In this document: piece by piece, positions 18,258 to 33,406 of the stretch
Numbering within the stretch: position 1 is the stretch's first letter
How the letters are laid out: each line of letters begins with the position of its first letter
IMG/VR virus record: IMGVR_UViG_3300027857_000027
Span: 1-46,065 of that record
From: a virus
Direction: 5' to 3' (one strand)
DNA: 46,065 nucleotides
The notes under the pieces: generated by a model
What the model was told of the DNA's origin: nothing
Database searches by the model: none
The model's input: the letters and a program-made list of their open reading frames with translations, nothing else
Translations under genes and position numbers: made by a program

Positions 18258-18266
18258 ACTGTTCCC

Positions 18267-19904: not shown

Positions 19905-20058
19905 ACTCGAGCATGCCCAGCTTCTGACATGGGAGAAGGACCGTTTCGCGCGCCCGTTCGAGGAGTGGCAGATCTGGCAGGTGCCCTGCCCCGCGGGGTA
20001 TGGCGCAAACTACGCGCTCGACCGCATGGTGAGCGCCCGCCCTTATGCCAAAGCGTGA
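19891..20058 (+). CDS. 55-residue hypothetical protein
   Basis: GTG start 14 nt before the portal stop, with GGGAG 7 nt upstream. The product (VKPRKLEHAQLLTWEKDRF...EEWQIWQVPCPAGYGANYALDRM) has good coding character. Longer readings of this frame lie opposite the portal frame and are rejected. Function unknown; the position suggests a head accessory protein. Confidence 0.55.
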   Translation: MKPRKLEHAQLLTWEKDRFARPFEEWQIWQVPCPAGYGANYALDRMVSARPYAKA

Positions 20059-20089
20059 CATCGCTGCCTTAAACAGTTAAGCTGATCTC

Positions 20090-20950
20090 GTGAGCCGTCT
20101 GCACATGTTTTTCCGGGGTCTCAAGCGCAAAGTACCGAAGCGCCTGCCCCGTCAACAACACCCCACACGTATTGCGGAGATGTACTTCGCAGACATCAAA
20201 CGCCACGTGCTCGATCCCCTGCATGTGCTCTGGTACAAACACGGGCTTCCGGTGTTGCTTGCCCTACGCGTTGATTCCTATGGCTGGGATCAGATGTGGT
20301 ACGTGCGCCTTACGCCATACTTCGCGCGCCTCGACGCCTCGTCTAAGACCGTACATGACGCAATCAACGAGATAGCGGCGACGTTCGTGCGGAACACGCC
20401 CACACGCTCCCTCGAGGGGCTGGCCGAGCGCTACGCGCGCGAAACGAGCGAGTGGCAGAAACAGCAGCTCGGGCTCGCCATGAAAGCGGCGATCGGCGTG
20501 GCGCTTGTGCCTGAGGGCAAGGATCTACCCGAGCGCTTCGCGAATTTCGCCTCAGAGAATGCAGCGCTCATTACGGGCATGACCAACGAGCTGACCGACT
20601 CCATCGCCAAAACTGTTACGCAGGGCATTGCGGACGGGGACCGCGCCGAGGACATCGCCGCGGACATCGAGGACAGGTTCGACGTGGGAGCGTCCCGCGC
20701 CGCGCTGATAGCGCGAGATCAGGTGGGCAAGTTCTACGGAGATCTCAACAAAGCCCGACAAACGGAGCTCGGGGTGGCCGGGTACACGTGGCGCACGATG
20801 CACGACCAGCGCGTGAGGGACGAGCATGTGGAGCTCGACGGGAAACACTTCGAGTGGGATGATCCACCGGAGGATGGGCACCCCGGGGAGCCGATTTTGT
20901 GCAGGTGCTTTGCCGAGCCCGATTTCTCGGGCATTTTGGAGGAAGAATGA
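20090..20950 (+). CDS. Minor head protein (Mu F / SPP1 gp7-like)
   Basis: A 286-residue head morphogenesis protein. The diagnostic C-terminal pattern is clear: ARDQVGKFYGDLNKARQ, then GYTWRTMHDQRVRDEH, WDDPPEDGHPGEPILCRC. Such proteins bind the portal inside the prohead and may be ejected with the DNA. The start is GTG with no Shine-Dalgarno sequence; TAAGCT lies 6 nt upstream, and a TTAAACAGTTAAG motif sits at 20069-20081. The last 13 residues (FAEPDFSGILEEE) are duplicated exactly at the end of the next gene. Confidence 0.85.
   Translation: MSRLHMFFRGLKRKVPKRLPRQQHPTRIAEMYFADIKRHVLDPLHVLWYKHGLPVLLALRVDSYGWDQMWYVRLTPYFARLDASSKTVHDAINEIAATFVRNTPTRSLEGLAERYARETSEWQKQQLGLAMKAAIGVALVPEGKDLPERFANFASENAALITGMTNELTDSIAKTVTQGIADGDRAEDIAADIEDRFDVGASRAALIARDQVGKFYGDLNKARQTELGVAGYTWRTMHDQRVRDEHVELDGKHFEWDDPPEDGHPGEPILCRCFAEPDFSGILEEE
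20907..20950. repeat. 44-bp perfect direct repeat, copy 1
   Basis: Identical to 21095-21138. It contains a hairpin (GCCCGA, TTTC loop, TCGGGC), a strong GGAGGAAG ribosome-binding site and an ATGA stop-start overlap. Confidence 0.95.
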
Positions 20951-21138
20951 ACTCAAGGTGCTGTGATTCCCCGGCGATTAAGAAAGGCAGGTGCTTGAAA
21001 TGTAGACAGTACGTGTTTGACTCACGCAATGATCGAGTCTTTTTTCAGGGCATTGAACTCAGAGATGCTGAAGTGACGCCCACGCATAGAGAACGCTTTG
21101 CCGAGCCCGATTTCTCGGGCATTTTGGAGGAAGAATGA
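20947..21138 (+). CDS. 63-residue Cys-rich protein, possible inserted cassette
   Basis: ATGA overlap with the minor head gene and strong GGAGGAAG upstream. The N terminus is NSRCCDSP, then KGRCLKCRQ: a CC...CxxC metal-binding pattern shared with the N terminus of the 126-residue protein at 21517-21897. The C-terminal 13 residues are an exact copy of the end of the minor head protein, because the gene lies between two 44-bp direct repeats. Unique DNA between the repeats is only about 144 bp. Function unknown. Confidence 0.6.
   Translation: MNSRCCDSPAIKKGRCLKCRQYVFDSRNDRVFFQGIELRDAEVTPTHRERFAEPDFSGILEEE
21095..21138. repeat. 44-bp perfect direct repeat, copy 2
   Basis: Partner of 20907-20950; it ends in the ATGA that starts the lipoprotein gene, just as copy 1 ends in the ATGA that starts the Cys-rich gene. 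Confidence 0.95.
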
Positions 21139-21272
21139 GAGAGTGGATCTGGTTTTCGGTTTTCATGGGGTTGGTGATTGGCGTTTTGGTTTCCGCGTGT
21201 CCGGCACACCGCTGGAAGGCCGTCCCGCCTCCGCTGGGGTGCCGGGATTCGGACTGTAAGGAGAGACAATGA
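21135..21272 (+). CDS. Small probable lipoprotein
   Basis: A 45-residue protein with a hydrophobic helix (WIWFSVFMGLVIGVLVSAC) ending in VSAC, an acceptable lipobox with Cys22, then a short Pro-rich tail with two more Cys. If processed, the mature lipoprotein is only ~24 residues. It is coupled to the next gene by ATGA. Small lipoprotein plus adjacent membrane coiled-coil protein is reminiscent of outer- and inner-membrane spanins, but the order is reversed and it is far from the lysis genes. Confidence 0.5.
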   Translation: MREWIWFSVFMGLVIGVLVSACPAHRWKAVPPPLGCRDSDCKERQ

Positions 21273-21520
21273 TCACATTCACAATATTTACTCTGGTGGC
21301 GGTTATAGGGGCGCTGATTTTGCATGCCAAGTTCTCGGAGCGGTCCCTGCTGCGTCGAAGGCGACTGGAGGAACGGCGCCTTGCCCAGCAGGCCCGTGAC
21401 GCGGATACTTACTGGAGGGAGGCGGACAAGGCCGATCGCGCGCGACTGAAAAAGAGTCAGGCTGAAACAATGCGAGAGGAATTTCAAACAATATACAACC
21501 TTGGAGGTATTAGAAAATGA
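21269..21520 (+). CDS. Membrane-anchored coiled-coil protein
   Basis: An 83-residue protein: N-terminal membrane helix (ITFTIFTLVAVIGALIL), then a long, highly charged helix rich in Arg, Glu and Gln. Topology is like an inner-membrane spanin or a small membrane scaffold. GGAGAG precedes the ATG. Coupled by ATGA upstream and overlapping downstream. Function inferred only from architecture. Confidence 0.5.
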   Translation: MITFTIFTLVAVIGALILHAKFSERSLLRRRRLEERRLAQQARDADTYWREADKADRARLKKSQAETMREEFQTIYNLGGIRK

Positions 21521-21897
21521 GCGCGGGATGTTGCGGTTTCCCGGTGATTGAGGAAGGCAAGTGCGTGAGGTGTGGCGCTGAACAAGCGGTGGTTTGGGCG
21601 CAAATTTCCACGCTCTGGGACTCGGCCGAAGGGATTAGCGAACTGCGCGCGGGAATGCAGGCGTGGCTGGATGCCGTGATCGCGGCTGTTCGAGATGTGT
21701 CTGCTCCGCGCACTCAGGAAGAACAGGCCGCGGTTAGGAACTCAGCTGATACTCTGCTGGCTTGTCCCAAGAAGTGGATTCCCGGCATGTTGCTCTGTGA
21801 GAACGGGCACACGCTGCAGGAACACCGCGCCGCCGAGAACCCGCCCGAAATCCCGACAGACGAGGACGATGAGGATGATGATTACCCGGACCTGTAA
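21517..21897 (+). CDS. 126-residue protein with N-terminal zinc-binding motif
   Basis: N terminus SAGCCGFPVIEEGKCVRCG has the CC...CxxC motif; its first 60 nt resemble those of the 63-residue gene at 20947, so the two share an ancestral N-terminal module. A helical middle (WDSAEGISELRAGMQAWLDAVIAAV) follows, then two more Cys (LLACP, MLLCENGH) and an extremely acidic C terminus (DEDDEDDDYPDL). GGAGG lies upstream of the ATG. Function unknown. Confidence 0.6.
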   Translation: MSAGCCGFPVIEEGKCVRCGAEQAVVWAQISTLWDSAEGISELRAGMQAWLDAVIAAVRDVSAPRTQEEQAAVRNSADTLLACPKKWIPGMLLCENGHTLQEHRAAENPPEIPTDEDDEDDDYPDL

Positions 21898-21966
21898 AAG
21901 TCCAGCGCTGCGGCACTGAAAAACCCGTGCTAGAAAGGCCGCTCACCCGTCGCACTGGAGAACCCC

Positions 21967-22185
21967 ATGCCCGTAGATAACACCCAGCTCGAAGCCCTCG
22001 TTCACGACGTCGAAGCGAAGGAACAGATCCTCTCCGATGACAGCGCCGCGAACGACCAGGCCCAATCCGCTGCGCAGGCCGCGGTCGCCACCGCCGCAGG
22101 CACACTGCAGACCAAGAACCAGGCACACGACGCACTGAGCGCCTCCATCGATGCGCTGGTCGCGTATGTGCAAGGCCTGAAGTAG
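21967..22185 (+). CDS. 72-residue coiled-coil protein
   Basis: Ala/Gln-rich, fully helical sequence (LEALVHDVEAKEQILSDDSA...) with GGAG 6 nt before the ATG. It resembles small phage structural or scaffolding helices; no family is recognised. It is followed by a large inverted repeat at 22196-22236. Confidence 0.55.
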   Translation: MPVDNTQLEALVHDVEAKEQILSDDSAANDQAQSAAQAAVATAAGTLQTKNQAHDALSASIDALVAYVQGLK

Positions 22186-22195
22186 GTCCAAGTAG

Positions 22196-22236
22196 CGGGG
22201 TCATCCGCGTTGACCCAGCGGTAACGGATGACCCCG
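22196..22236. terminator. 12-bp perfect inverted repeat after the coiled-coil gene
   Basis: CGGGGTCATCCG and CGGATGACCCCG flank a 17-nt loop. There is no T-run, so it may be a factor-dependent terminator, an RNA-stability hairpin or an operator. It lies just before the promoter at 22273-22301. Confidence 0.5.
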
Positions 22237-22272
22237 TGTAGGACACTGCAGATCAGCGAAACTGTTAAGCCC

Positions 22273-22301
22273 TTGCATTGGCACGCGCGAAGCATTACTG
22301 T
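22273..22301 (+). promoter_or_regulatory. Rightward promoter
   Basis: TTGCAT, 17-nt spacer containing GGCACGCG, then TACTGT, ending 6 nt before the ATG at 22308. The spacer and -10 match the duplicated leftward promoters at the window's left end. An AAACTGTTAAG motif lies just upstream at 22259-22269. Confidence 0.65.
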
Positions 22302-22307
22302 TAGGTC

Positions 22308-22544
22308 ATGGACAACGCAACGGAGATGAAAATGGAAAAAGTAACGCGAATCCCCCACCTGGTCTCATTCGGCGATAAACCCCACACGTTCAAAGTAGGA
22401 CGCGGAGAAGCAGGCTGGACTGTGCGTGACTGTGGCGACGCTCGATCGGCTGCATTGTTCTTCGAATGTCACCAGTTTGCAGCAATGCCTTGCTGGGTGC
22501 GTTTTGAGGTGATTGGGGGCGAGCTCTTCGATCGTGGTGCCTAG
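22308..22544 (+). CDS. 78-residue hypothetical protein
   Basis: Product contains VTRIPHLVSFGDKPHTFKVGRGEAGWTVRDCG and is likely a small beta-rich domain. Two starts compete: the ATG at 22308, placed exactly where a leaderless transcript from the 22273-22301 promoter would begin, and one at 22332 preceded by CGGAG. It has its own promoter and a terminator, so it is a self-contained transcription unit (moron-like) inside the head gene cluster. Function unknown. Confidence 0.6.
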   Translation: MDNATEMKMEKVTRIPHLVSFGDKPHTFKVGRGEAGWTVRDCGDARSAALFFECHQFAAMPCWVRFEVIGGELFDRGA

Positions 22545-22571
22545 TCTTCTTTCTTACTCGCCGCAGACTCG

Positions 22572-22595
22572 GGCCCCTTCGGGGGCCTTTGTCTT
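22572..22595 (+). terminator. Intrinsic terminator with UUCG loop
   Basis: GGCCCC, loop TTCG, GGGGCC followed by TTTGTCTTTT. Closes the transcription unit of the 78-residue gene. Confidence 0.8.
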
Positions 22596-22628
22596 TTCTA
22601 CGTTAGAACGCGTGGTAGACTTTCCCCC

Positions 22629-22691
22629 ATGTCTACCCACCGTGCGGACCGTATCGAAAAGCGTGGCTCCAAGTACGTCGTTTTGCCGTGA
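22629..22691 (+). pseudogene. 20-codon truncated copy of the following gene's start
   Basis: Encodes STHRADRIEKRGSKYVVLP then TGA; the segment aligns with the first 18 residues of the gene at 22741 (SFRSDRIEKRGSSYVVLS) at DNA and protein level. Upstream GTGGTAGACT also matches GTGGCAGACT before the second copy, each 7 nt before the ATG. This is a partial tandem duplication about 112 bp long; whether the short peptide is made is unknown. Confidence 0.65.
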
Positions 22692-22715
22692 CGGTAAGGT
22701 AGCCTTCCCTGCACG

Positions 22716-22740
22716 GGCGTTCAGTGGCAGACTGAACGCC
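22716..22740 (+). promoter_or_regulatory. Hairpin occupying the ribosome-binding position
   Basis: GGCGTTCAG and CTGAACGCC (9 perfect pairs, 7-nt loop) end at the base before the ATG at 22741. No Shine-Dalgarno sequence is available. It could be a regulatory structure, or irrelevant if transcription begins at the ATG. Confidence 0.5.
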
Positions 22741-23271
22741 ATGTCCTTCCGTTCCGACCGAATCGAAAAGCGCGGCTCCTCCTACGTCGTTCTAAGCGAG
22801 GCCGGGAAGGTTCTCGGCAAGCACCCCACGCGCGCCGAAGCGGTCGCCCAGCTCGGAGCCGTCGAGGCATCCAAAGCCCGTGCTAAGAAAGACGTCGACA
22901 ACTCCGGCACTTGGGAAGGCAACGAGGCCGCTAGCGTCGAGCTCCCCGAATCGGAGTGGGCCCACCGCAAGGGCGAAGCCCCGGCCCCCGCCGCAGCTGA
23001 GATTGCCCACCTGCAGACCGCTTCCGACCCCCACGCGCACGCGGGCTCCCCAGGATCGCCGAAAGGCTCCGTGGTGAAGGCCCCGAACGACGAATCCGAT
23101 TATCCGGACGAAGAGGAGGAAGAAGAGAAGGACGACGAATACGGAGACGATGATCACGCCACGGGCGAAGCCCAAGGAGAGTTGAATGCCCTCAGTGTCC
23201 ACGACCCTGAACGGATGGAGCATGACGCTAGTCCGGCCCTGCACCGCAGTCGTGCTCACGTCGGGAAGTAG
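22741..23271 (+). CDS. Head-associated protein with acidic C-terminal region
   Basis: A 176-residue protein. The N-terminal ~45 residues (RIEKRGSSYVVLSEAGKVLGKHPTRAEAVAQLGAVEASKAR) match a short module common in phage head genes near the prohead protease. An Ala/Pro-rich middle and a strongly acidic stretch (DYPDEEEEEEKDDEYGDDDH) follow. It may act as scaffold or as part of the protease assembly. No ribosome-binding site; see the hairpin at 22716-22740. Longer upstream readings in frame cross the terminator and are rejected. Confidence 0.65.
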   Translation: MSFRSDRIEKRGSSYVVLSEAGKVLGKHPTRAEAVAQLGAVEASKARAKKDVDNSGTWEGNEAASVELPESEWAHRKGEAPAPAAAEIAHLQTASDPHAHAGSPGSPKGSVVKAPNDESDYPDEEEEEEKDDEYGDDDHATGEAQGELNALSVHDPERMEHDASPALHRSRAHVGK

Positions 23272-23273
23272 CA

Positions 23274-25463
23274 ATGGCGACTACCCCCAAAGAATCATCG
23301 GGCGGTACATCCCCCCGCGGGGATAACGCCCTCGATCTCATCGCTGGACCCGGTCAGGCGAAGCAGCCCGACGAGGTCAAGGTCCGCAAGCACGGACTCG
23401 CGAAGGCGCAGCCGGATATGCGCGAGCTCCCCACGGAGGATCCCGCAAATCTCGGCACCGGTGAGGAGCTCGAGAAGGGTATCTACAGTGACCTTTCCGA
23501 CGAAGAGAAGAGTACCTACGACAAGCTAGACGCCGAGGGCAAAGCAGCTTTTATGAAAAATCGAGCCGGCGGGCTCAAGGCCTCGGGCGCGCGCGGTCCC
23601 GCGGGCGGGCCCGCTGACAAGCTCGGCAAGAACGGGATCAAAGACGACCTTAACGTGGGCCTCGGCGGTGCTCGTAAGGGCCCTTCAGACCTGCTCGCAA
23701 CCCAGGAAGGGCCGTTGCCCCACGCCAACGAGGCCAACGAGCCCAACTACGCCGAGGCGAATCCGCGCGCGCTGGGCGGCCCGGACGGCGCTCGGCGGGC
23801 TAACGACCCCGCTGGGGATGATGACTTCCAACGCCTGAAGCAGGCGGGCATCAAGGCGGGCCCTACGTCGACATCGGACGGCGGGCGCCTCTCGAGCCAG
23901 GTTCGGAAAGATTTTGATCCGGATCAGCCGCGGGATGAAAGCGGAAAGTGGAGTGGTGGCGGAAGCTCTGATCAGATCGCAGCGCACGTAAGCAAAGAGG
24001 GTTTTACTCCGCGTCGAACTAGCAGCGGGGTTGAGATGGTTAAAGGGGCTAGGTCTCACGGAGAAATCCCCTACGGGGCAACACACGAACGAGCAGTAGA
24101 AATTACTGCCAAAGCACACGCCTCACACGCACGAATGGTTGCTAATAAGCCAACTACGCCAAACACACACGAAGTGAAATTACACCAGAATCAGGCTGTG
24201 CGAGAGCGCTACCAAAAGAATTTCAACGAAGGGGGCGAGGGCTATAACCCCCACGATCCGCGGTACCAACTACAATCCAAAAAACATGATTCCTTGCTAG
24301 TGGACGTGTGCCGATACGACTCCGGTGCGCTAGCCAGGCCCGAGGTGCTCGATAATGGCTGGATGCGCCTCGAGGCCCATCTCACACGGTCCGGGATCTT
24401 CGAGTACAAGCAGCCGGACGGCACTGTGCGGCGCGAGTATCGCCCGGCGGACGAGGTGTTTAACGAGAAATCACTGAGTACGTTTCGTATGGTTCCTGTC
24501 ACAGATGATCATCCCCCGTGTGGTTTCCTAGACTCCTCGAACGTCAAGCTCTACCAGGTCGGGCAGCTTGGCGACGCGGTGGGGCGGGATGGCGACCGCG
24601 TGCGCGCGGCCTTGATGGTTACGGATCCAATGCTCGTCACGCGGCTACAAAACGGCCACCCGGGGCAGCTTTCGTGCGGCTACCACTGCGACCTTGAGCT
24701 GACCTCCGGCCAGTTCAACGGCGAGAAATACGACGCGATTCAGCGGAATATCCGAGGCAACCACGTTGCGGTGGTGGAGACTGGGCGCGCGGGTCCAGAG
24801 GCGCGCATGCGCCTAGACAGCGCGGACGCAACGATGCTAACTTCTGTAGGTACTGAACAAGCGTTCACGTCGGAGGCCCTCGTGGCGAACAAGGTTTTGC
24901 GAATTGATGGAGTTGACTTCGAGGTGACGGAGCAGGCCGCGCAAGCGGTCGCCAAGCTCCAGGCCGAGCGCGAGACCGCGCGGGCTGATCTCGAAAAGCT
25001 CCAAGCGCGGGCTGACAGCCTCGCGGAGAATCTCCAGAAAGCCGAATCGGCGCGGAAAGCCGCGGAGGATCCCAAGCGCGTTGCTAGCCTGGTCGCCGCT
25101 CGCGTTTCGCTGGAGCGCACCGCCAAGGAGATTCTCGGAGACGTGAAGGTCGATTCCATGAGCGCAGCTGACATCAAGCTCGCGGTCATCGCCAAGGCTT
25201 CCCCCGACTTCAAGGCCGAAGGCCGCTCCCCGGAGTATCTGCAGGCCCGGTTCGATACCGCGCTCGAGACTCTCGAGGCGGGCAAGACCCGCGCGATCGA
25301 CAAGGTCCGCGAAGTCATCGTGGAGGGCGAGAAGAAAACCGACGCTGTCCCCACCGAGGACGCGTACGACAAAATGGTTCGCGAGCAGCGCGAATACTGG
25401 AAGTCTCCCCCGAAGGACGCCAACGGCACCCCGGCTATTCGCTGGGCCACCGCCAACAGTTAA
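23274..25463 (+). CDS. Prohead protease (DUF2213-like) fused to scaffold and N-terminal extension
   Basis: A 729-residue composite. Residues ~1-215 are disordered and Gly/Ala/Asp-rich. DFDPDQPRDESGKWSGGG follows, a linker known from phage head proteins, then a segment of more A-rich DNA (about residues 238-335). Residues ~340-515 match DUF2213 prohead protease: VCRYDSG..., SGIFEYKQPDG, VTDDHPP, LSCGYHCDLE, GPEARMRLD. Residues ~550-610 form a coiled coil (KLQAERETARADLEKLQARA), as expected of a scaffold. It probably guides capsid assembly and then cleaves itself and the head proteins. GGAAG precedes the ATG. Confidence 0.8.
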   Translation: MATTPKESSGGTSPRGDNALDLIAGPGQAKQPDEVKVRKHGLAKAQPDMRELPTEDPANLGTGEELEKGIYSDLSDEEKSTYDKLDAEGKAAFMKNRAGGLKASGARGPAGGPADKLGKNGIKDDLNVGLGGARKGPSDLLATQEGPLPHANEANEPNYAEANPRALGGPDGARRANDPAGDDDFQRLKQAGIKAGPTSTSDGGRLSSQVRKDFDPDQPRDESGKWSGGGSSDQIAAHVSKEGFTPRRTSSGVEMVKGARSHGEIPYGATHERAVEITAKAHASHARMVANKPTTPNTHEVKLHQNQAVRERYQKNFNEGGEGYNPHDPRYQLQSKKHDSLLVDVCRYDSGALARPEVLDNGWMRLEAHLTRSGIFEYKQPDGTVRREYRPADEVFNEKSLSTFRMVPVTDDHPPCGFLDSSNVKLYQVGQLGDAVGRDGDRVRAALMVTDPMLVTRLQNGHPGQLSCGYHCDLELTSGQFNGEKYDAIQRNIRGNHVAVVETGRAGPEARMRLDSADATMLTSVGTEQAFTSEALVANKVLRIDGVDFEVTEQAAQAVAKLQAERETARADLEKLQARADSLAENLQKAESARKAAEDPKRVASLVAARVSLERTAKEILGDVKVDSMSAADIKLAVIAKASPDFKAEGRSPEYLQARFDTALETLEAGKTRAIDKVREVIVEGEKKTDAVPTEDAYDKMVREQREYWKSPPKDANGTPAIRWATANS

Positions 25464-25475
25464 GGAAAAACGTTC

Positions 25476-25985
25476 ATGTCGCAGACCGACGTTGCAGTCT
25501 CCAAGTCGCCCGTCAAGGGCATGATCGCGGATGCCATGGAAGGCATGGATATCCGTTCGTTCGCCAACACTGACACCATCAATCTCGACTTTGGGTACAT
25601 GGTTGCCCTCGGCGCGGATGACGCTGGCGCTATTGCGCCCGCGACCTCTGGCGCCAAGATGCTCGGGATCAACACCTACGCCGCGACGTTTGACCCGGGG
25701 CCCTTCGGCCTTTTGGTTCAGACTGGCTCGAACCCAGGCCTCAAGCCAGGCGCCGCGCTGAACGTCATGGCACGCGGTCGCATCTGGGTCGCTGTCGAGG
25801 AAGCAGTCAACGCCGAAGACCAGGCCTATGTCCGCTACGCCTCCGGCGCAGGCGGGACCATTCTGGGCGCATTCCGAAAGAGCGCCGACACCTCGACCGC
25901 CGTTGCGGTCAAGGGCAAATACAAGACCTCCCAAGCAACACCGGGCGGGCTGGCGATTCTCGAGTTCAACGCAGAAGTCTTCTAG
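25476..25985 (+). CDS. Capsid cement/decoration protein (DUF2190-like)
   Basis: A 169-residue beta-rich protein (DTINLDFGYMVALGADDAG, MLGINTYAATFDPG, GRIWVAVEEAVNAEDQAYVRY) with the pattern of head-stabilising proteins encoded between protease and major capsid genes. It should coat the capsid surface after expansion. AAGGAAA lies before the ATG, overlapping an ACAGTTAAGG motif at the end of the protease gene. Confidence 0.75.
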   Translation: MSQTDVAVSKSPVKGMIADAMEGMDIRSFANTDTINLDFGYMVALGADDAGAIAPATSGAKMLGINTYAATFDPGPFGLLVQTGSNPGLKPGAALNVMARGRIWVAVEEAVNAEDQAYVRYASGAGGTILGAFRKSADTSTAVAVKGKYKTSQATPGGLAILEFNAEVF

Positions 25986-26018
25986 CAGTAGACCCCGAGC
26001 GGGTCTGAGGAAAACACG

Positions 26019-26996
26019 ATGGGCAGCTTCAACCGAGATCAGTTCCGCGCGGACATCGCCGAGAAATGGGCGCGGGCCACCGGAAGGCACGACGCGGCCG
26101 AGTCGGCGTTTTTCGCACGGCAACTCGAAGATATTCGAGGGCGAGCGTACGACTACAAGCTGATCGAGCTCAAGGCCCGGATGTTCCTACCGGTCGATAA
26201 CTCCGTTAACCCCGGGGCTGAGTCGGTCACTTACTCGCAGTTCACTCCCCGTTCGCTGGCGAAGATCATCGCCTCCTACGCGGATGATCTCCCCCGCTCG
26301 GATTCGACTGGTCTGCAGTTCACCGCTCAGATCAAGGGTATCGGCGGGAGCTACGGATACTCCATCCAAGAGATTCGGGCCGCGCAGATGGCAGGCCTTC
26401 CCCTCGACCAGCGGCGAGCCAACGCGGCCCGGCGCGGTGTTGAGGTGGTGATCGACAAGATCGCGCAGAGTGGCGACTCAGATTACAAGCTGGTCGGTTT
26501 CTTCAACCAGCCCTCAGCGACCACGTTCACCGTCCCCGCTGGTGTTAGCGGATTCACCGACTGGGCTCGGAAGAATCCTGGAGAGATCCTCTCCGACATG
26601 AATGGGGTTGCGAACTTCATCGTTTCGAATACGAGCGAGGTCGAGAAGCCTGACACTCTGCTGGTCCCGATCAAGCAGTACACTCAGATCGCTACCACGC
26701 CGATGAACTCGGCAAACGCCTCGAACGTGACCATTCTGGACATGTTTCTTAAGAATCAACCGTTCGTGCAGATGGTTGCCCCCTGGTACGCGCTCACTGG
26801 CGCCGGGGCTGGGTCCACTGACCGAATGATCTGCTACAAGCGGGATCCGGATCACCTCATGCTCGTCATCCCCCAAGAGTTCGAGCAATTCCCTCCCCAG
26901 CAGCGCAACCTCGAGTTCGTGGTCAACTGCCACGCCCGCTGCGGCGGGGTGCAGGTACCGTACCCTCTGGCCATAGCTTACGCGGATGGCGTGTAG
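26019..26996 (+). CDS. Major capsid protein (DUF2184-like)
   Basis: A 325-residue protein with the DUF2184 capsid pattern: FLPVDNSVNPGAESVTYSQF, ADDLPRSD, GGSYGYSIQEIRAAQMAGLPLDQRRA, ending FVVNCHARCGGVQVPYPLAIAYADGV. It forms the icosahedral shell by an HK97-like fold. GAGGAAAA precedes the ATG. A cluster of hairpins follows the stop, consistent with a highly expressed, separately terminated gene. Confidence 0.85.
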   Translation: MGSFNRDQFRADIAEKWARATGRHDAAESAFFARQLEDIRGRAYDYKLIELKARMFLPVDNSVNPGAESVTYSQFTPRSLAKIIASYADDLPRSDSTGLQFTAQIKGIGGSYGYSIQEIRAAQMAGLPLDQRRANAARRGVEVVIDKIAQSGDSDYKLVGFFNQPSATTFTVPAGVSGFTDWARKNPGEILSDMNGVANFIVSNTSEVEKPDTLLVPIKQYTQIATTPMNSANASNVTILDMFLKNQPFVQMVAPWYALTGAGAGSTDRMICYKRDPDHLMLVIPQEFEQFPPQQRNLEFVVNCHARCGGVQVPYPLAIAYADGV

Positions 26997-27003
26997 ATCT
27001 ACT

Positions 27004-27042
27004 TAGCCCGCACGGGCTATTTGAGGCGGGACGTATCCCGCC
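27004..27042 (+). other. Tandem hairpins after the capsid gene
   Basis: TAGCCC-GCAC-GGGCTA at 27004-27019, then GGCGGGA-CGTA-TCCCGCC at 27025-27042. Neither has a proper T-run; they may protect the capsid mRNA 3' end. Confidence 0.55.
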
Positions 27043-27072
27043 GAGTCACCGGCTGGTGGCGGACACGTACGG

Positions 27073-27103
27073 AAAGCCCGGTTAGCGCCGGGCTTTCGTC
27101 TTT
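27073..27103 (+). terminator. Intrinsic terminator upstream of the tRNA
   Basis: AAAGCCCGG and CCGGGCTTT form a 9-bp perfect stem with a 6-nt loop, followed by CGTCTTT. Confidence 0.8.
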
Positions 27104-27104
27104 G

Positions 27105-27113
27105 TGATACTGT
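27105..27113 (+). promoter_or_regulatory. tRNA promoter, extended -10
   Basis: TG-A-TACTGT ends 7 nt before the first base of the tRNA, immediately after the terminator, so the tRNA appears to have its own transcription start at or near its mature 5' end. Confidence 0.55.
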
Positions 27114-27120
27114 TACTCTC

Positions 27121-27192
27121 AGCGCGGTAGGAAAGCGGTAATCCGTCGGGCTCATAACCCGAAGATCCTCGGTTCGACTCCGAGCTGCGCTA
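27121..27192 (+). tRNA. tRNA-Met (CAT), initiator-like
   Basis: A 72-nt cloverleaf: acceptor AGCGCGG/CTGCGCT (one G-U), 3-bp D stem GGA/TCC, anticodon stem TCGGG/CCCGA around CTCATAA, T stem CTCGG/CCGAG around TTCGACT, discriminator A. CCA is not encoded. The anticodon stem carries the three G-C pairs that mark initiator tRNAs, and the arm is the same as in E. coli tRNA-fMet. Position 11-24 is G-C (purine-pyrimidine), also initiator-like. The 1-72 pair is a weak A-U instead of the bacterial C-A mismatch. Confidence 0.9.
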
Positions 27193-27208
27193 CTGAAAGG
27201 CGGTACAC

Positions 27209-27685
27209 ATGGCAGATGCACCCAAGACCGCGCCTCAGGCGCCCCGGCACGCGGGTTTCGTGCGCGTTGTTTCCCACAAACACTCAATCTGGCAGTTCGG
27301 CTCAGAGGCAGAGGGGCACCGATTCCTCCCTGGAGTGAATGAGGTACCTGACAAGGCGTGGACCTACCTCAAGACGCTCAAGACGAGTTTGGCCAAGAAA
27401 AACAAGGATGGTAGTTACAAGGATTTCAATTTTCTCGAACACCACATCAAGGTGAAGGATCTCGAGGTCCTCTCCGAGGGCAATACAAAACCGTTTGATG
27501 AACTCCCCGCGGAGCAGGCGCTTGAGCTGGTCAAGGAAACCGCGAATCCCGAGCTCCTCGAGGAGTGGTCCGAGATGGACCTTGAGACCGAGGTCGCCCG
27601 CGCGGTGCGCGATCAGAAAGACGATCTAAAGCCCGGTGCGCCGCTCGACCCGCTCAAAGAGGGGCAAGGCACGGCTAACCCGTGA
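27209..27685 (+). CDS. Hypothetical head protein, 158 residues
   Basis: AAGGCGG upstream of ATG. N-terminal part (HAGFVRVVSHKHSIWQFGSEAEGHRFLPGVNEVPDKAWTYLK) is a small mixed alpha/beta unit; the C-terminal half is acidic and helical (ELVKETANPELLEEWSEMD). Its location between capsid and connector genes suggests a head accessory role. No family is recognised. Overlaps the next gene by GTGA. Confidence 0.65.
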   Translation: MADAPKTAPQAPRHAGFVRVVSHKHSIWQFGSEAEGHRFLPGVNEVPDKAWTYLKTLKTSLAKKNKDGSYKDFNFLEHHIKVKDLEVLSEGNTKPFDELPAEQALELVKETANPELLEEWSEMDLETEVARAVRDQKDDLKPGAPLDPLKEGQGTANP

Positions 27686-28038
27686 TTGTTTGGGCAGACG
27701 TTGTGAACATCGCGCCGGGCGACGCCAAAATCGCCGCGGTGCCGCTCGCCTCGCAGACCGCGATCCTCGCCGACGTCTATGCTCAGATGAGCGCGGCGAA
27801 TTGGGGCACGCGGTTGGACCTTGGTGCGAAGTGGTTTGCCGCACACCTCGCGACGGTGGGAGCCCAGGGGGCCCTCGGCGCTGGCGGGCCCGTGAGCGAG
27901 CATCGAGTTGGCGAGGTGGCGCGCTCGTACGCGGTGCCCACGGCGATGAATGTGCTCCTAGAAACTACGCCTTACGGTAAAGAATTCGTGCGCCTTTACC
28001 GAAGCCTCAATCTCCGCTGGCTCATCGGATCGGTGTGA
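27682..28038 (+). CDS. Head-tail connector (DUF4054-like)
   Basis: A 118-residue protein matching DUF4054: WGTRLDLGAKWFAAHLA, VSEHRVGEVARSYAVP, LLETTPYGKEFVRLYRS. These are adaptor proteins that bind the portal ring. GTG start overlapping the preceding stop; its own stop overlaps the next GTG. Confidence 0.75.
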   Translation: MIVWADVVNIAPGDAKIAAVPLASQTAILADVYAQMSAANWGTRLDLGAKWFAAHLATVGAQGALGAGGPVSEHRVGEVARSYAVPTAMNVLLETTPYGKEFVRLYRSLNLRWLIGSV

Positions 28039-28526
28039 AGTTCTCCCTCAAGAGCTCCCTCAAAGGCTTCGAGCAGCTCACGCAAGCCCTGCGCGGGATT
28101 AAGGGAAACAGTTACGCTAAAGCCGGATTGCTCGGGGCGAACAACGCACGGGACGACTCTACGGCAGGCAACGTGGAGATCGGCCTCGTTCACGAGTTCG
28201 GCTCAGAGGTAAACAACATCCCCGCCCGCCCATTCGTCTCAGCCGCGTTCAAGAAAAACCTGCCGGCTTACAAGGAGACTCTGCGCGAGTACGTCCGAGC
28301 CATCTACGCGGGCAAAATGACCCCCGCCAAAGCACTTGGGCTCATCGGGCTCCGGATGGCCGCGGACATGAAGCTTTACGTCACCGAGGGACCGCACATC
28401 CCCCCGCCGCTCCAACCCGAGACTGTGGCGCGCAAGGGCTCGGATCGCCCTCTCGTAGATACCGGAAGAATGGTCGACTCCATCGCCCACGAAGTGGTGC
28501 TTGGCGGGCGCTCGCAATCGGAATAG
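28035..28526 (+). CDS. HK97 gp10-like tail-completion/neck protein
   Basis: A 163-residue protein with typical features: EIGLVHEFGSEVNNIPARPFVSAAFKKN, a helical middle, and RPLVDTGRMVDSIAHEV at the C terminus. Members complete the neck or tail. GTG start in a GTGA overlap. Confidence 0.75.
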   Translation: MKFSLKSSLKGFEQLTQALRGIKGNSYAKAGLLGANNARDDSTAGNVEIGLVHEFGSEVNNIPARPFVSAAFKKNLPAYKETLREYVRAIYAGKMTPAKALGLIGLRMAADMKLYVTEGPHIPPPLQPETVARKGSDRPLVDTGRMVDSIAHEVVLGGRSQSE

Positions 28527-28536
28527 GATGGACCCC

Positions 28537-28995
28537 ATGAAAAACTTTCTTTTGTCCCTCGCTGTGCCGTGTCTGCTCGCCTTCGTGATGATTGGCCTCG
28601 CCGCGCCGCTGGCGCGTGCCTCCAGTGATTTTCAGTACCAGCTCTCTTCTAGTTCCGCGGACGGTGGGGCTGTTACCGTGCGAAACTGGAACGCTCTTTC
28701 TGACGCTGGGCTTCAGGGTCCGCTCTTTTCGCCCCGACAGACGGTCAGTTTCCAATGCAACACGGATAGCTATCTGGCACTGGTCGCCAGCGACGCTGGC
28801 TTTTTAGATGACGGCGGGACACTCTCCTCGTCCAACGGGCTGCGCATCCAAGCAAACGACAGGCCGCTGCCTCAGCAAGTCGTTGTCCCCTCGGTGGGTG
28901 TATTGATGACTCCCAAAAGCACCGCACTCTGCACCGCAGGATCGCCCTGTACGTGCAACGTGTTTCTCGAAAGCTCTTTACCGGTCAATCCGTAG
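28537..28995 (+). CDS. Exported protein encoded in the neck cluster
   Basis: A 152-residue protein starting with an apparent signal peptide (KNFLLSLAVPCLLAFVMIGL..., likely cleavage after ARA at about residue 30). The mature part is beta-rich with four or five Cys, including CTAGSPCTC near the end, consistent with disulphides in the periplasm. AGGATGGA precedes the ATG. Not a recognised neck protein; see also 29376 and 29705, which begin the same way. Confidence 0.65.
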   Translation: MKNFLLSLAVPCLLAFVMIGLAAPLARASSDFQYQLSSSSADGGAVTVRNWNALSDAGLQGPLFSPRQTVSFQCNTDSYLALVASDAGFLDDGGTLSSSNGLRIQANDRPLPQQVVVPSVGVLMTPKSTALCTAGSPCTCNVFLESSLPVNP

Positions 28996-29004
28996 CGAGC
29001 AGCT

Positions 29005-29379
29005 GTGTCCGTCGAGGACCTCAGCGACGTTATTTTTCAGCTCCAGTCTGGCACGTACACGGTCACGCGCTCTGCACCGGGCGTGATTGGTTCGGACGGG
29101 CGTCTCGTGCCTGGCTCTCAATCTACGTTTTCAATTCTCGCCTCAGTACAGCCTATGACAGGGCGGGACCTGCTCCGACTCCCTGAGGGGCAGCGGACCA
29201 AGGAGAATCTCAAGATCTGGAGCCAAACCCAGCTTTTTACATCCGGCGCGGGGCAGGATCCCGACACGGTCGCGGTGGACGACGCTGATTTCCAGGTGCA
29301 GATGTGTCGTCGCTGGGGACCGAATGGCAACTACTGGTATGCTGAGGCGTCGAAGGTCGGCAGGGAGCTTGGAGCATGA
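29005..29379 (+). CDS. Neck protein, probable head-tail stopper
   Basis: A 124-residue protein (GTYTVTRSAPGVIGSDGRLVPG, SVQPMTGRDLLRLPEGQRTKENLKIWSQTQLFT, ending in an aromatic strand) matching a family found between connectors and tail terminator in Mu/Pam3-type myophages. GTG start, 9 nt after the previous stop; no clear Shine-Dalgarno sequence. Confidence 0.65.
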   Translation: MSVEDLSDVIFQLQSGTYTVTRSAPGVIGSDGRLVPGSQSTFSILASVQPMTGRDLLRLPEGQRTKENLKIWSQTQLFTSGAGQDPDTVAVDDADFQVQMCRRWGPNGNYWYAEASKVGRELGA

Positions 29380-29708
29380 AGCGTTTGATTTTTGTGGTGC
29401 TGTTCGTAGCGGGCGCGGTACTGGCCGCGGGCCTCACCTCGGAGGTCTTGGTTCAGTCCAGCGCCCCTACTCTCATGGTGCGCAACCCACAGAGCGCTGG
29501 GTTTGAGTTCTACAACCACGGCCCTAACGCGATCTGGTGCGCCATCGGCGGGGACGGCGGGACCGCGCTGAGTGGCAAGAGCAGGAAAATCGCCTCCGAG
29601 GGAACCTGGAGCGCTGCGCAAAACGGCACTGTCCCTGTGTGGTGCGTGGCAGATACCGCAGGGCAGGACAGCGGCGCGGCCACGGTGATGACGGAGTCAA
29701 TCCCGTGA
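29376..29708 (+). CDS. Small exported protein
   Basis: A 110-residue protein: KRLIFVVLFVAGAVLAAG is a signal peptide, then a small beta-sandwich-like domain (FEFYNHGPNAIWCAIGG, VPVWCVADTAG) with two Cys that could form one disulphide. ATGA overlap upstream and GTGA downstream place it firmly in the operon. Function unknown; possibly displayed at the cell envelope or on the virion. Confidence 0.65.
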   Translation: MKRLIFVVLFVAGAVLAAGLTSEVLVQSSAPTLMVRNPQSAGFEFYNHGPNAIWCAIGGDGGTALSGKSRKIASEGTWSAAQNGTVPVWCVADTAGQDSGAATVMTESIP

Positions 29709-30577
29709 AAAAGTTTTGGTTTGGTTTTCTGGTGATCGCTGGTGTGGCGATCGCCCAGCAAGCACCGTTCGAGTCTGGGAGCACCGGCGCCTCGCTCTCT
29801 AACACTTCGGGCACGAACACCGGCGATGTCACGCTTGGAGCACCAAAAAACGGACTCGGAATCTCAGGGCAGACCCTCACGTTGGATACCACAACGCTTG
29901 ACGCGGGCACGCTCAACATCAACGCGGCGAACAACTCCGGAAGTGAGAACCTCGCTGGCACTCTGGATGCTGGTACGGTAGTGACGCAAAACCTACTGGT
30001 GAAAGCCTCTCAGTCCGGTGGGATGACTGTTGTGGAGAACAACACCTCCAACACAGCGGGCGGGTTCGTGAAGCATTTCCTACAGGCGTCAAACACCTCA
30101 GTGGATGTCCAATATCAGTTAGAGAACCCGGGTCAGGACACCACGCTAGGCATCTATCACGGCACGAACCACTATCAGCTGGTGAACGGACTCGCGCTCA
30201 ATACCAATGTGTTGCAAGACGTTGATCCGTCTCAGGGTAACCACTACGTTGTGGGACGGCTCTCTCTTGGCCCGTTCAGTGGCACGCAGAGTGGGACTGC
30301 TGCGTATCTCAATGCGGTGCCAACGATTTCTTACGTGCAAGGCTCGGCGAATGGCACCATCTACAACATCGAGGAGGGCGTGAATGCACTGACCGCCGGG
30401 GCATACACAGCCACTCTGCACTTCTCCTCCGGCGTTCCGATGTGTACGTGTAACGAGGTTGCGGCCACCCCACTTGCGTGCGGCCTATCCGCCGACCCGA
30501 CAAACACGTCTGCTGCTTTCGCGGTCTCCGCTGGGGGATCAAATAAAATTCACTGGCGCTGCGAAGGCATCCATTAG
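29705..30577 (+). CDS. Fibre-like protein with signal peptide
   Basis: A 290-residue protein from a GTG overlapping the previous stop. KKFWFGFLVIAGVAIAQ is a probable signal peptide. The following SNTSGTNTGDVTLGAPKNGLGISG is a motif recurrent in phage tail-fibre proteins, followed by Asn/Thr/Gly-rich beta repeats and a Cys-containing end (MCTCNEV...CGLSADP...HWRCEG). Encoded between neck genes, it could be a neck whisker or fibre, but the signal peptide does not fit cytoplasmic virion assembly. A longer frame upstream overlaps the previous gene and is rejected. Confidence 0.65.
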   Translation: MKKFWFGFLVIAGVAIAQQAPFESGSTGASLSNTSGTNTGDVTLGAPKNGLGISGQTLTLDTTTLDAGTLNINAANNSGSENLAGTLDAGTVVTQNLLVKASQSGGMTVVENNTSNTAGGFVKHFLQASNTSVDVQYQLENPGQDTTLGIYHGTNHYQLVNGLALNTNVLQDVDPSQGNHYVVGRLSLGPFSGTQSGTAAYLNAVPTISYVQGSANGTIYNIEEGVNALTAGAYTATLHFSSGVPMCTCNEVAATPLACGLSADPTNTSAAFAVSAGGSNKIHWRCEGIH

Positions 30578-31173
30578 TGTCCGCAGCTAATTGGAAATCC
30601 ATCGAGGATGCCCTGCGCACCTGGATTCAGGGCGTGACTGGATTCGACGACCAGCACTGCTACTTTGCCGATCAGAACGTGAAATCCCCGGGCTCTGGAC
30701 CGTGGGTGACGATTCGTCTGGAGGGTACCGAGGCGGTAGGCGCGTTCGACGGCACGTTCGCTCTGGATCGCACGGTTCTTGGGTTCCCCCTCACGCCCCC
30801 AATCACGATGGGCGGGCCGGCTCCAGGGACCGAAATAGAACTTCAATCTATGGCACCGCGGTACATGGACGTTACGCTTCAGGCGTTCAACGGACTGGTC
30901 ACCCACGGAACCGATTTCCTCTACCTCTCCGGTGCCACCTTACTGACGCGCGTGCAGGCCTCCCTCGGGCAGCCAAGCTTCCGCGATCCTCTGAACTCCG
31001 CTGGGCTGGGCGTGGTGGATATCGGGCGCGTGCAGAACGTTGCGGCCAACATTGAGACGCGGTTCGAGGGTCGGGGCATTCTCACGGTTCGGTTTAACCT
31101 GTTCGATTCTGCCAGCGATTTCACGGGGTACATCGCTACGGTGACGGGCCCCACGGGAACGCTCAACCCCTAG
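30577..31173 (+). CDS. Tail terminator/neck protein (gp12-like)
   Basis: A 198-residue protein of the neck-terminator family: SIEDALRTWIQGVTG, GPWVTIRLEG, APRYMDVTLQAF, ending VRFNLFDSASDFTGYI. It should cap the tail tube and join it to the head. GTG start overlapping the previous stop by one base. Confidence 0.7.
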   Translation: MSAANWKSIEDALRTWIQGVTGFDDQHCYFADQNVKSPGSGPWVTIRLEGTEAVGAFDGTFALDRTVLGFPLTPPITMGGPAPGTEIELQSMAPRYMDVTLQAFNGLVTHGTDFLYLSGATLLTRVQASLGQPSFRDPLNSAGLGVVDIGRVQNVAANIETRFEGRGILTVRFNLFDSASDFTGYIATVTGPTGTLNP

Positions 31174-31194
31174 CGCGCTTGCGCTGAACGCCTG

Positions 31195-31200
31195 TATAGT
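31195..31200 (+). promoter_or_regulatory. -10 hexamer before the tail sheath gene
   Basis: TATAGT in the 33-nt gap before the sheath gene, ending 6 nt before its ATG. No ribosome-binding site is present, so a leaderless message for this highly expressed gene is plausible. No -35 match. Confidence 0.5.
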
Positions 31201-31206
31201 ACCCTC

Positions 31207-32517
31207 ATGGCGCTTTCCGACATCGTCAACATTGCGATCTCTGTGGCCTCGGCCAACGCGATCCAGCCCGGCTACGGCAAGGCGCTGATCCTCCAATACC
31301 ACACGCACTACGCGGACCGGATTCGTACGTACGTGAACGCGTCCGATCTTCTCACGGATGGTTTCGGCGCGACCGAGCCGGCCTACCTCGCAGCGCAGGC
31401 GCTCTGCTCGCAGAACCCGCGCCCTCCAGATTTCCAGGTCGGGCGCCTCGCGCTCGCCCCCACGATGCATTGGACCCTCACCCCGGGCGTGCACGACTCC
31501 ACCGTCTACACGGTCTCGGTGGACGGCCAAAGCGCTTCATTTACCTCGGGCGTGGGCGCCACTGCTTCGACTATCTGCTCCGGGCTAAAGACAGCGATTG
31601 ACGCTCTTTCCCTCGCGGTGACCGCTGTCGCGGGCACGACTCTCACCCTCGCTGCCAACGTCGCGGGCGTGTATCACTACTTTGAAGCAGCCGATCCGGC
31701 CCTTGAATCAATCGTCATGGATCACGCCGATCCGGGCGTCGCCACCGACCTGGCTGCAATCGCCACGGCGGACAATACCTGGTACGCGCTGATCAATCCT
31801 TACCCCTCCGTGGCGATGTCCGCGGCTGTATCGACCTACGCTGAGGCAAACACCAAAATCTACCTCGTGGCGTCACAAAACGGGGATATTCTCACGGGCT
31901 CGACCACGGATATCGCCAGCGCGGCACAGACCAACGGGGACACCCGAACTGCGGTTCTGTACCATCCACAGCCCCACCAGTTCGCAGATGCGGCGTGGGC
32001 TGGCGCACGGCTATGGACGAACCCGGGATCGGAAACGTGGGCGTTCGTCGCCCTCGCTGGAGTCTCGGCGACTACGCCTCAACTCACGGCCACTCAGCGG
32101 ACCAACGCGCTCGCCAAGAATGCCACTGTTTACGAGACTGTGGCGGGACTCAATATCACCGAGTTCGGGCACGTGGGGGCCAATACTGGGGGTAGCTGGA
32201 TCGACATCATCCGCTTTCGCGACTGGCTCCAGAGCACGATGCAAATCAACATCCTCGTGGCGCTCACGAGCAACCTCAAGATCCCATACACCGACTCAGG
32301 AATCGGGATCATCGAGGCGCAGGTACGTGCCACCCTGGAGGCGGGAATCAGCGCGGGCGGGCTCGCGCGCAACCCCGCCTATCAAGTTAGCGTGCCCAAG
32401 GCCTCGAGTGTTTCCAGCTCTGACCGCACAGCCCGCGTGTTGAACAATGTCACCTTTACCGCCCAGCTAGCCGGGGCGATTCACACCGTCAACATCAAGG
32501 GTCAGGTGACCGTCTAA
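31207..32517 (+). CDS. Contractile tail sheath protein (DUF3383-like)
   Basis: A 436-residue sheath protein: ISVASANAIQPGYGKALIL at the N terminus, a variable inserted domain (~90-160), WIDIIRFRDWLQSTMQ near 340 and LKIPYTDSGIGIIEAQV. The C-terminal strand (VNIKGQVTV) is the one exchanged between sheath rings. It contracts to drive the tube through the envelope. Start lacks a Shine-Dalgarno sequence; see the TATAGT upstream. The stop overlaps the tube start (TAATGA). Confidence 0.85.
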   Translation: MALSDIVNIAISVASANAIQPGYGKALILQYHTHYADRIRTYVNASDLLTDGFGATEPAYLAAQALCSQNPRPPDFQVGRLALAPTMHWTLTPGVHDSTVYTVSVDGQSASFTSGVGATASTICSGLKTAIDALSLAVTAVAGTTLTLAANVAGVYHYFEAADPALESIVMDHADPGVATDLAAIATADNTWYALINPYPSVAMSAAVSTYAEANTKIYLVASQNGDILTGSTTDIASAAQTNGDTRTAVLYHPQPHQFADAAWAGARLWTNPGSETWAFVALAGVSATTPQLTATQRTNALAKNATVYETVAGLNITEFGHVGANTGGSWIDIIRFRDWLQSTMQINILVALTSNLKIPYTDSGIGIIEAQVRATLEAGISAGGLARNPAYQVSVPKASSVSSSDRTARVLNNVTFTAQLAGAIHTVNIKGQVTV

Positions 32518-32939
32518 TGAAACAGTATGACCCAAAGCAGTTGATTATCACCTTCGCGAATGTCCCAATCTCGGGCTTCGACGCGGGGAGTTTCGTCAAA
32601 GTAGCGCGCAACGAGGATACGTGGACCCTTTCCGTGGGTGCCGACGGGCAGTCCGCGCGCACGCGAAACCAGAACCGCTCAGGCATCGTGGTTTTCACCC
32701 TGCAGCAGTCATCGCCCAGCAATGACGTTCTGAGCGCTTTTGCCGTCCAAGACGAACTTTTGGGGGTCGGCGTGGCGCCCATGCTGGTGAAGGACTTGGT
32801 TGGCACCTCACTGTACGCCGCGCAGAACGCGTGGGTGAAAAAGCCCGCGGACACCGAGTTTGCCAAAGAATTTCAGTCCCGCGAGTGGACGATCGAGTGC
32901 TCTGACCTGAACGTGTTCGTTGGCGGGGCGCTAGGGTAG
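32517..32939 (+). CDS. Tail tube protein (DUF3277-like)
   Basis: A 140-residue protein with the tube family pattern: PKQLIITFANVPISGF, KVARNEDTWTLSVGADGQSARTRN, PSNDVLSAF, VKDLVGTS, EWTIECSDLNVFVGG. Forms the inner tube inside the sheath. Directly follows the sheath gene with a one-base overlap. Confidence 0.85.
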   Translation: MKQYDPKQLIITFANVPISGFDAGSFVKVARNEDTWTLSVGADGQSARTRNQNRSGIVVFTLQQSSPSNDVLSAFAVQDELLGVGVAPMLVKDLVGTSLYAAQNAWVKKPADTEFAKEFQSREWTIECSDLNVFVGGALG

Positions 32940-32959
32940 TCCTCAGAAAGTAGGCAGTC

Positions 32960-33406
32960 TTGATCAAGACCGAAGAGAAGGAGATTGACGGGCTCCGTTT
33001 CTCCGTCACCCAGCTTCCAGGAATGCGCGGGCTTCGGATGTCTGTTAGGTTAGGCAAGCTCTTGGGGCCTGCCCTGGCCCGCGCGGCCGGGGCCGCAACC
33101 GGAGGGCTTGCCTCGCTCGACGTAAGCAAGCTCTCCGGCGCGGTGGACGCGCTATTTGAGCACCTCACCGAGGATGAGATTGAATCGGTGACGAAGGCCC
33201 TACTCGAAAGCTGCCTGGTAACGATCGAGGGCAAGACCGGCCCCCTTATGCCAATGTTCGACACGGTCATGGGTGGGAAGGTCGCCACGGTCTACAAACT
33301 GTTACGGTTTGCCTTCGAGGTAAACTTCGGAAATTTTTTCGGCGGGCTCGCCGCGCTGGGCGCACAATTCGGGGCGGGCCCGGAGTCCAGGCCCCTCCAG
33401 CAATAG
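32960..33406 (+). CDS. Tail assembly chaperone, short form
   Basis: A 148-residue protein starting at TTG, between tube and tape-measure genes where tail assembly chaperones always lie. It has a helical core (GALVDALFEHLT-like segment at ~55-75, ESVTKALLESCLVTIEG). It binds and keeps the tape measure soluble. Its frame ends at 33406, but a slippery site at 33376-33382 lets a fraction of ribosomes continue in the -1 frame to 33558. Confidence 0.7.
   Translation: MIKTEEKEIDGLRFSVTQLPGMRGLRMSVRLGKLLGPALARAAGAATGGLASLDVSKLSGAVDALFEHLTEDEIESVTKALLESCLVTIEGKTGPLMPMFDTVMGGKVATVYKLLRFAFEVNFGNFFGGLAALGAQFGAGPESRPLQQ

What the first reader, a model, noticed from the sequence alone, without database searches (positions are those of the whole stretch)
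27121..27192. Phage-encoded initiator-like tRNA with its own promoter
The lone tRNA has the three G-C pairs in the anticodon stem and the exact anticodon arm of bacterial tRNA-fMet, plus a purine-pyrimidine 11-24 pair. Its 1-72 pair is A-U rather than the bacterial C-A mismatch, a weak pair that may still allow formylation. It sits between a perfect terminator and the connector genes, with TGATACTGT 7 nt upstream. A phage carrying a translation initiator tRNA could favour its own, partly leaderless, messages.
Basis: partly seen in the sequence, partly recalled or inferred. Interest (0 to 1): 0.72.

Follow-up and report, generated by a model that had tools for sequence, protein, structure and literature searches.

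The report
Phage initiator-like tRNA with archaeal-style end
A virus that most likely infects bacteria carries a single gene for an initiator-type tRNA, the molecule that starts protein synthesis, whose end pair (A1-U72) is normal in archaea but was absent from 4,438 surveyed bacterial initiators; it belongs to a widespread, little-noticed set of phage initiator-like tRNAs.

Summary
A well-formed lone tRNA(CAU) lies at 27121-27192 (+) with the full fMet anticodon arm (three G-C pairs), G11-C24, A1-U72 and A73, just after a perfect terminator. In published tables of 9,917 bacterial CAU tRNAs, GGG/CCC and G11-C24 mark initiators, but A1-U72 occurs in 0 of 4,438 initiators; it is the archaeal form (archaeal pattern in 51/148 Nanoarchaeota genomes, 0/299 Proteobacteria). 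An archaeal host is nevertheless unlikely: bacteriophage gene content, a post-capsid terminator hairpin recurring in six of ten relatives examined, and relatives with bacterial-type initiators. Phage initiator-like tRNAs are common: at least 120 viral stretches with the arm. In a sample of 63, positions 2-4/69-71 are largely kept, while 1-72 is relaxed (12/63 Watson-Crick, versus 1.4% in bacteria). An A1-U72 example sits in a contig related to Pseudomonas phages. Two relatives carry lone initiator-like tRNAs at other sites, so the element looks accessory and repeatedly gained. Best reading: a supplementary phage initiator, possibly spared by initiator-targeting host toxins; function untested. 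The promoter is weakly supported and leaderless messages are unsupported. New variant of a known kind.

The parts
27121..27192 (+). initiator-like tRNA(CAU): A1-U72, G11-C24, three G-C pairs in the anticodon stem, A73, no encoded CCA
   Evidence: class frequencies
27072..27097 (+). perfect 11-bp intrinsic terminator hairpin followed by GTCTTTG, at the end of the capsid operon; six of ten relatives examined have a strong GC-rich hairpin at this place, most with a T-rich tail
   Evidence: top hit of the scan; relatives
27105..27113 (+). TGATACTGT, imperfect extended -10-like sequence 7 nt before the tRNA, no -35; function doubtful. Relative G001 has TGCTAACGT at the same distance
26019..26996 (+). 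major capsid protein (phrog_264), upstream neighbour
   Evidence: E 1.2e-85
27209..27685 (+). downstream gene of unknown function (phrog_1983), ATG 16 nt after A73 with a weak SD-like AAGG

Best explanation
The element is a phage-encoded initiator-type tRNA of a myovirus that most likely infects a bacterium. It sits as an accessory insertion in the gap between the post-capsid terminator and the next late gene. Shown: the tRNA, its initiator hallmarks (three G-C pairs, R11-Y24, G2-C71, C3-G70, G4-C69, A73), its unusual A1-U72, its position, and the presence of other initiator-like tRNAs at other places in two relatives and in many unrelated phages. Inferred: it is made late in infection by read-through of the terminator or from a weak extended -10 promoter, receives CCA post-transcriptionally, is charged with Met by the host MetRS, is at least partly formylated despite A1-U72 and enters the ribosomal P site, so that it tops up or replaces the host initiator. 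A likely selective reason, not shown, is that its altered acceptor stem (A1-U72, C5-G68, G6-U67) spares it from host enzymes that disable the initiator tRNA.
For: Initiator identity. Formylase determinants other than 1-72 (A73, G2-C71, C3-G70, G4-C69) are all present (list from PMC9976931); 48 of 63 viral initiator-like tRNAs keep all four, while 1-72 is relaxed. Bacterial setting: family A polymerase and VapE-type primase/helicase genes, capsid, terminase and sheath relatives in bacteriophages, post-capsid hairpin terminators in relatives. An A1-U72, A11-U24 tRNA (L223) lies in a contig whose replication region matches Pseudomonas phages and whose terminator-tRNA unit matches phage D3 at 74%; D3 itself has a C1.U72 initiator-like tRNA directly after a terminator. 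Relatives: G001 (68% capsid identity, collinear) has U1.U72 with GGG/CCC between terL and portal; G008 has C1.A72, A11-U24. Toxin idea: acetylation of E. coli initiator by AtaT falls to about 20% with A1-C72 and 25-50% when 4-69, 5-68 or 6-67 is turned to C-G (PMC7595197).
Against: A1-U72 is absent from 4,438 bacterial initiators, and review text gives the unpaired 1-72 as the main formylation determinant, so formylation may be poor. The host is unknown and no host initiator could be compared. Expression is not shown and the promoter is weak. The effect of A1-U72 itself on AtaT was not measured in the paper, and no initiator-targeting enzyme is known for this host. Most relatives (37 of 43 contigs searched, many of them fragments) show no tRNA, so it is dispensable.
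Confidence: 0.62

Rival explanations
1. Archaeal virus: the host is an archaeon and the tRNA is simply a copy of the host's A1-U72, G11-C24 initiator.
For: A1-U72 plus G11-C24 is an archaeal combination: 51 of 148 Nanoarchaeota genomes match the AGCG...CGCTA pattern, and of 29 parsed 15 are G11-C24 and 14 A11-U24; 0 of 299 Proteobacteria match. One capsid relative (44%) is in a Nanoarchaeota MAG, and CCA is not encoded.
Against: The other capsid relatives found in genomes are in bins of five bacterial groups, so binning is the likelier reason. Family A DNA polymerase, bacterial-type post-capsid terminators in relatives, relatives with C1.A72 and U1.U72 initiators, and lower identity to archaeal initiators (mean 0.70, best 0.76) than to the best phage tRNAs (0.84-0.85).
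Confidence: 0.12
2. It works mainly as a Met elongator: with A1-U72 it escapes formylation, binds EF-Tu and inserts internal methionine.
For: A1-U72 occurs in 36 of 5,479 bacterial CAU elongators and 0 of 4,438 initiators. A single acceptor-end change lets the E. coli initiator act in elongation in vitro (title of Seong and RajBhandary 1987, seen in the reference list).
Against: GGG/CCC (3 of 5,479 elongators) and G11-C24 (0 of 5,479) would be unexplained.
Confidence: 0.12
3. RNA punctuation: the tRNA is kept as a processing site that cuts read-through capsid transcripts and frees the 5' end of the next late message, whatever its decoding role.
For: It sits 16 nt before the next ATG and after a terminator. 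In G001 it lies between terL and portal, in QDWS359 shortly after terL. A terminator-like hairpin lies within 60 nt upstream of 10 of 101 initiator-like viral tRNAs against 7 of 449 control windows. The flanks can pair around the tRNA (single prediction).
Against: Punctuation needs no initiator identity, yet three of the five clear tRNAs in this phage group (window included) are initiator-like.
Confidence: 0.08
4. tRNA-dependent lysogeny: the phage integrates into a host initiator tRNA gene and supplies a replacement.
For: The mechanism is established for other isotypes in actinobacteriophages (PMC10865867).
Against: No integrase among the window proteins scanned, and the tRNA lies inside the structural module.
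Confidence: 0.04

Closest known systems
Bacterial tRNA-fMet
   Same: anticodon arm with three G-C pairs, R11-Y24, G2-C71, C3-G70, G4-C69, A73
   Different: A1-U72 instead of a mismatch (0 of 4,438), G11-C24 instead of A11-U24 (3 of 4,438), no CCA, short D loop, C5-G68 and G6-U67
Archaeal initiator tRNA
   Same: A1-U72, G11-C24, three G-C pairs, A73, AGCG/CGCU acceptor end
   Different: D loop AGCGGTA is short and has GGTA where the archaeal set mostly has GGAGT; found in a virus with bacteriophage genes; at most 0.76 identity to the archaeal set
Phage-encoded tRNA-Met/fMet (Pseudomonas phage D3; phiLM21-like Sinorhizobium prophages; Stenotrophomonas phage QDWS359)
   Same: initiator-like or fMet-annotated phage tRNA; in D3 directly after an intrinsic terminator; in 15 phiLM21-like prophages a single tRNA, Met in 10 and fMet in 4 (PMC12429752)
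   Different: D3 has C1.U72; the window has A1-U72 and G11-C24
L201, L230 and L236 viral tRNAs
   Same: same AGCGCGG/CTGCGCT acceptor stem; L201 also the same T arm
   Different: other D arms and variable loops (L201 and L236 also other anticodon stems), unrelated or unexamined phage context

Membership tests
tRNA (RF00005) | cloverleaf scored above the gathering cut-off | tested here: met
   66.3 bits against 29
bacterial initiator tRNA-fMet | three G-C pairs at 29-31/39-41 | tested here: met
   sequence; frequencies
bacterial initiator tRNA-fMet | R11-Y24 pair, A-U in 4,430 of 4,438 | tested here: met
   G11-C24: R-Y but the rare form
bacterial initiator tRNA-fMet | 1-72 mismatch (or U-A) | tested here: not met
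   A1-U72, 0 of 4,438
bacterial initiator tRNA-fMet | secondary formylase determinants A73, G2-C71, C3-G70, G4-C69 | tested here: met
   sequence; list
bacterial initiator tRNA-fMet | formylated Met-tRNA bound by IF2 in the P site | not testable with these tools
   needs biochemistry
archaeal initiator tRNA | A1-U72 with three G-C pairs and R11-Y24 | tested here: met
archaeal initiator tRNA | carried by an archaeon or archaeal virus | tested here: inconclusive
   bacteriophage-like genes and terminators, but host not identified
elongator tRNA-Met or tRNA-Ile2(CAU) | 11-24 pair C-G (5,465 of 5,479), not R-Y | tested here: not met
   G11-C24, 0 of 5,479 elongators
tRNA-dependent lysogeny systems | integrase plus cognate tRNA | tested here: not met
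   no integrase among the proteins scanned; window may be incomplete

The most novel reading that the evidence does not exclude
Bacteriophages across many lineages carry their own initiator tRNAs in which the universal bacterial 1-72 mismatch has been relaxed, in this one to the archaeal/eukaryal A1-U72 pair, making a phage-specific initiator that bypasses or resists host control of initiation (formylation, or enzymes that disable the initiator tRNA).
Probability: 0.25. Interest if true: 0.75.

Novelty: new variant of a known kind. Interest (0 to 1): 0.45.

Why it matters
The 1-72 mismatch is nearly universal in bacterial initiators and is read by formylase. Phages that keep every other initiator determinant but let this pair change offer natural variants for asking what the mismatch is needed for, whether phage messages can start on a separate initiator, and whether initiator tRNA is a contested target in phage defence. 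It also suggests that CAU tRNAs listed only as tRNA-Met in phage genomes deserve re-annotation.

Tried and rejected
Archaeal host: serious after the A1-U72/G11-C24 match; weakened by terminators, gene content, relatives and the L223 example. Own sigma-70 promoter: no consensus site in 16000-35900; TGnTAnnnT at distance 7 occurs in 2 of 136 viral initiator-like tRNAs, the window and G001 only, noticed after the fact. Leaderless messages: SD analysis with mechanically chosen starts gives no support, but is biased towards SD. DNA search for the locus in sequenced phages found nothing. The capsid search of GTDB gave six MAGs of six different groups, no usable host. Portal search gave only two loci. 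RNA folding of the tRNA alone does not give the cloverleaf as the minimum-energy state, as often happens for unmodified tRNA sequences. Pseudanabaena phage Pan5 has an A1-U72, A11-U24 tRNA but T at 73, so it was not used as a clean cultured example. No covariance models for initiator against elongator were built; published class tables were used instead.

Full report
What is there. The window is a 46,065-base virus record with capsid, portal, terminase and tail sheath genes of a myovirus, a family A DNA polymerase and a VapE-type primase/helicase. Its only tRNA is at 27121-27192 +. Read by position: A1-U72, G2-C71, C3-G70, G4-C69, C5-G68, G6-U67, G7-C66; G10-C25, G11-C24, A12-U23; D loop AGCGGTA; anticodon arm TCGGG-CTCATAA-CCCGA; variable loop AGATC; T arm CTCGG-TTCGACT-CCGAG; A73; CTG follows instead of CCA.

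Which class. A survey of 9,917 bacterial CAU tRNAs (PMC5143459) gives 4,438 initiators and 5,479 elongators (Met and Ile2). GGG/CCC occurs in 3,849 initiators and 3 elongators, G11-C24 in 3 and 0, A1-U72 in 0 and 36. A naive combination with pseudocounts gives about 200:1 for initiator, but A1-U72 does not fit any bacterial initiator in that set. It fits archaea: the pattern AGCG...GGGCTCATAACCC...CGCTA is in 51 of 148 Nanoarchaeota genomes and 0 of 299 Proteobacteria, and archaeal examples use both G11-C24 and A11-U24.

Is the host an archaeon? Probably not. The structural, terminase and replication proteins have their relatives in bacteriophages. The terminator after the capsid gene is a perfect hairpin, and six of ten relatives examined (L002-L006, L009) have a strong GC-rich hairpin at the same place, most with a T-rich tail; such terminators are a bacterial trait (established knowledge). 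Relative G008 has a C1.A72, A11-U24 tRNA and relative G001 a U1.U72 one, both bacterial forms. A capsid relative in a Nanoarchaeota MAG stands beside others in bacterial MAGs. The host remains unidentified.

A wider class. Of 82 distinct tRNAs parsed from them, 63 have R11-Y24. In these 63, G2-C71 is kept in 60, C3-G70 in 62, G4-C69 in 53 and all formylase secondary determinants in 48, while 1-72 is Watson-Crick in 12 (bacteria: 63 of 4,438, p about 3e-10), A1-U72 in 3 and G11-C24 in 9. The sample may include some host flanks and archaeal viruses, so the figures are approximate. A direct search for the A1-U72 form gave 59 stretches. One, L223, has A1-U72 and A11-U24 directly after a terminator, in a contig whose replication region matches Pseudomonas phages and whose terminator-tRNA unit resembles that of phage D3. 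D3 itself has a C1.U72 initiator-like tRNA after a terminator, annotated tRNA-Met. So A1-U72 initiator-like tRNAs do occur in phages of bacteria.

Accessory element. Of 43 related contigs, many of them fragments, six have any tRNA match and four a match above the family cut-off. G001, 68% identical in the capsid protein and collinear with the window, has its tRNA between terL and portal; G008 has its own about 1.5 kb after the capsid gene; in relatives L002-L005 the post-capsid gap holds no tRNA. Three of five clear tRNAs in this group are initiator-like and lie in three places, which suggests repeated gain or movement. G001 also shares TGnTAnnGT seven bases before the tRNA and the trailer CTACTGA-AGGC, so the cassette may be common; this was noticed after the fact.

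How it may work. Shown: structure and hallmarks. Inferred: late transcription by read-through or a weak extended -10 sequence, post-transcriptional CCA, charging by MetRS, partial formylation and use in initiation. A reason for keeping it could be supply late in infection or escape from host enzymes that attack the initiator. For AtaT, A1-C72 lowered acetylation to about 20% and C-G at 4-69, 5-68 or 6-67 to 25-50% (PMC7595197); the window tRNA has A1-U72, C5-G68 and G6-U67, but A1-U72 itself was not tested there. A published hypothesis holds that phage tRNAs evade anticodon nucleases; its authors report that phages generally avoid tRNA-fMet where the anticodon itself is the target (PMC10264068). 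The window's anticodon loop is unchanged; G001 has C at position 38.

Verdict. A real, well-formed initiator-like tRNA with an end pair not recorded in a large survey of bacterial initiators; a new variant of the known kind 'phage-encoded fMet-like tRNA'.

Noticed in passing
window 3876-4961 and 4943-6058, - strand: The family A DNA polymerase appears split into two overlapping frames matching adjacent parts of phrog_17 (792-1003 and 1009-1232): a split gene, programmed frameshift or sequencing frameshift.
   Followed up: no
window 26997-27097: Between the capsid stop codon and the tRNA the RNA is predicted to form several hairpins in a row before the terminator (TAGCCCGCACGGGCTA, GGCGGGACGTATCCCGCC, CACCGGCTGGTG); z-score -4.1 for 26985-27215.
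   Followed up: partly
window 27104-27113 and 27197-27209: The tRNA flanks GTGATACTG and GGTACAC are predicted to pair around the tRNA and to cover the region just before the start of the next gene; chance not excluded.
   Followed up: no
L190/L298 (G001), terL-portal gap: Initiator-like tRNA with U1.U72 and C at position 38 (CTCATAC loop), near the cleavage site recalled for VapC in initiator tRNA.
   Followed up: partly
L292 (Xanthomonas phage Elanor, about 4.07 kb): Unannotated initiator-like tRNA (U1.U72, A11-U24) after terL; Stenotrophomonas phage QDWS359 has an annotated tRNA-fMet in the same position.
   Followed up: partly
L309 (Pseudanabaena phage Pan5, 31.58-31.66 kb): A1-U72, A11-U24 initiator-like tRNA overlapped by a CDS annotated 'omega transcriptional repressor', with T instead of A at position 73.
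   Followed up: partly
L201, L230, L236 and window: The acceptor stem AGCGCGG/CTGCGCT with a G6-U67 wobble recurs in initiator-like tRNAs of apparently different phages.
   Followed up: no
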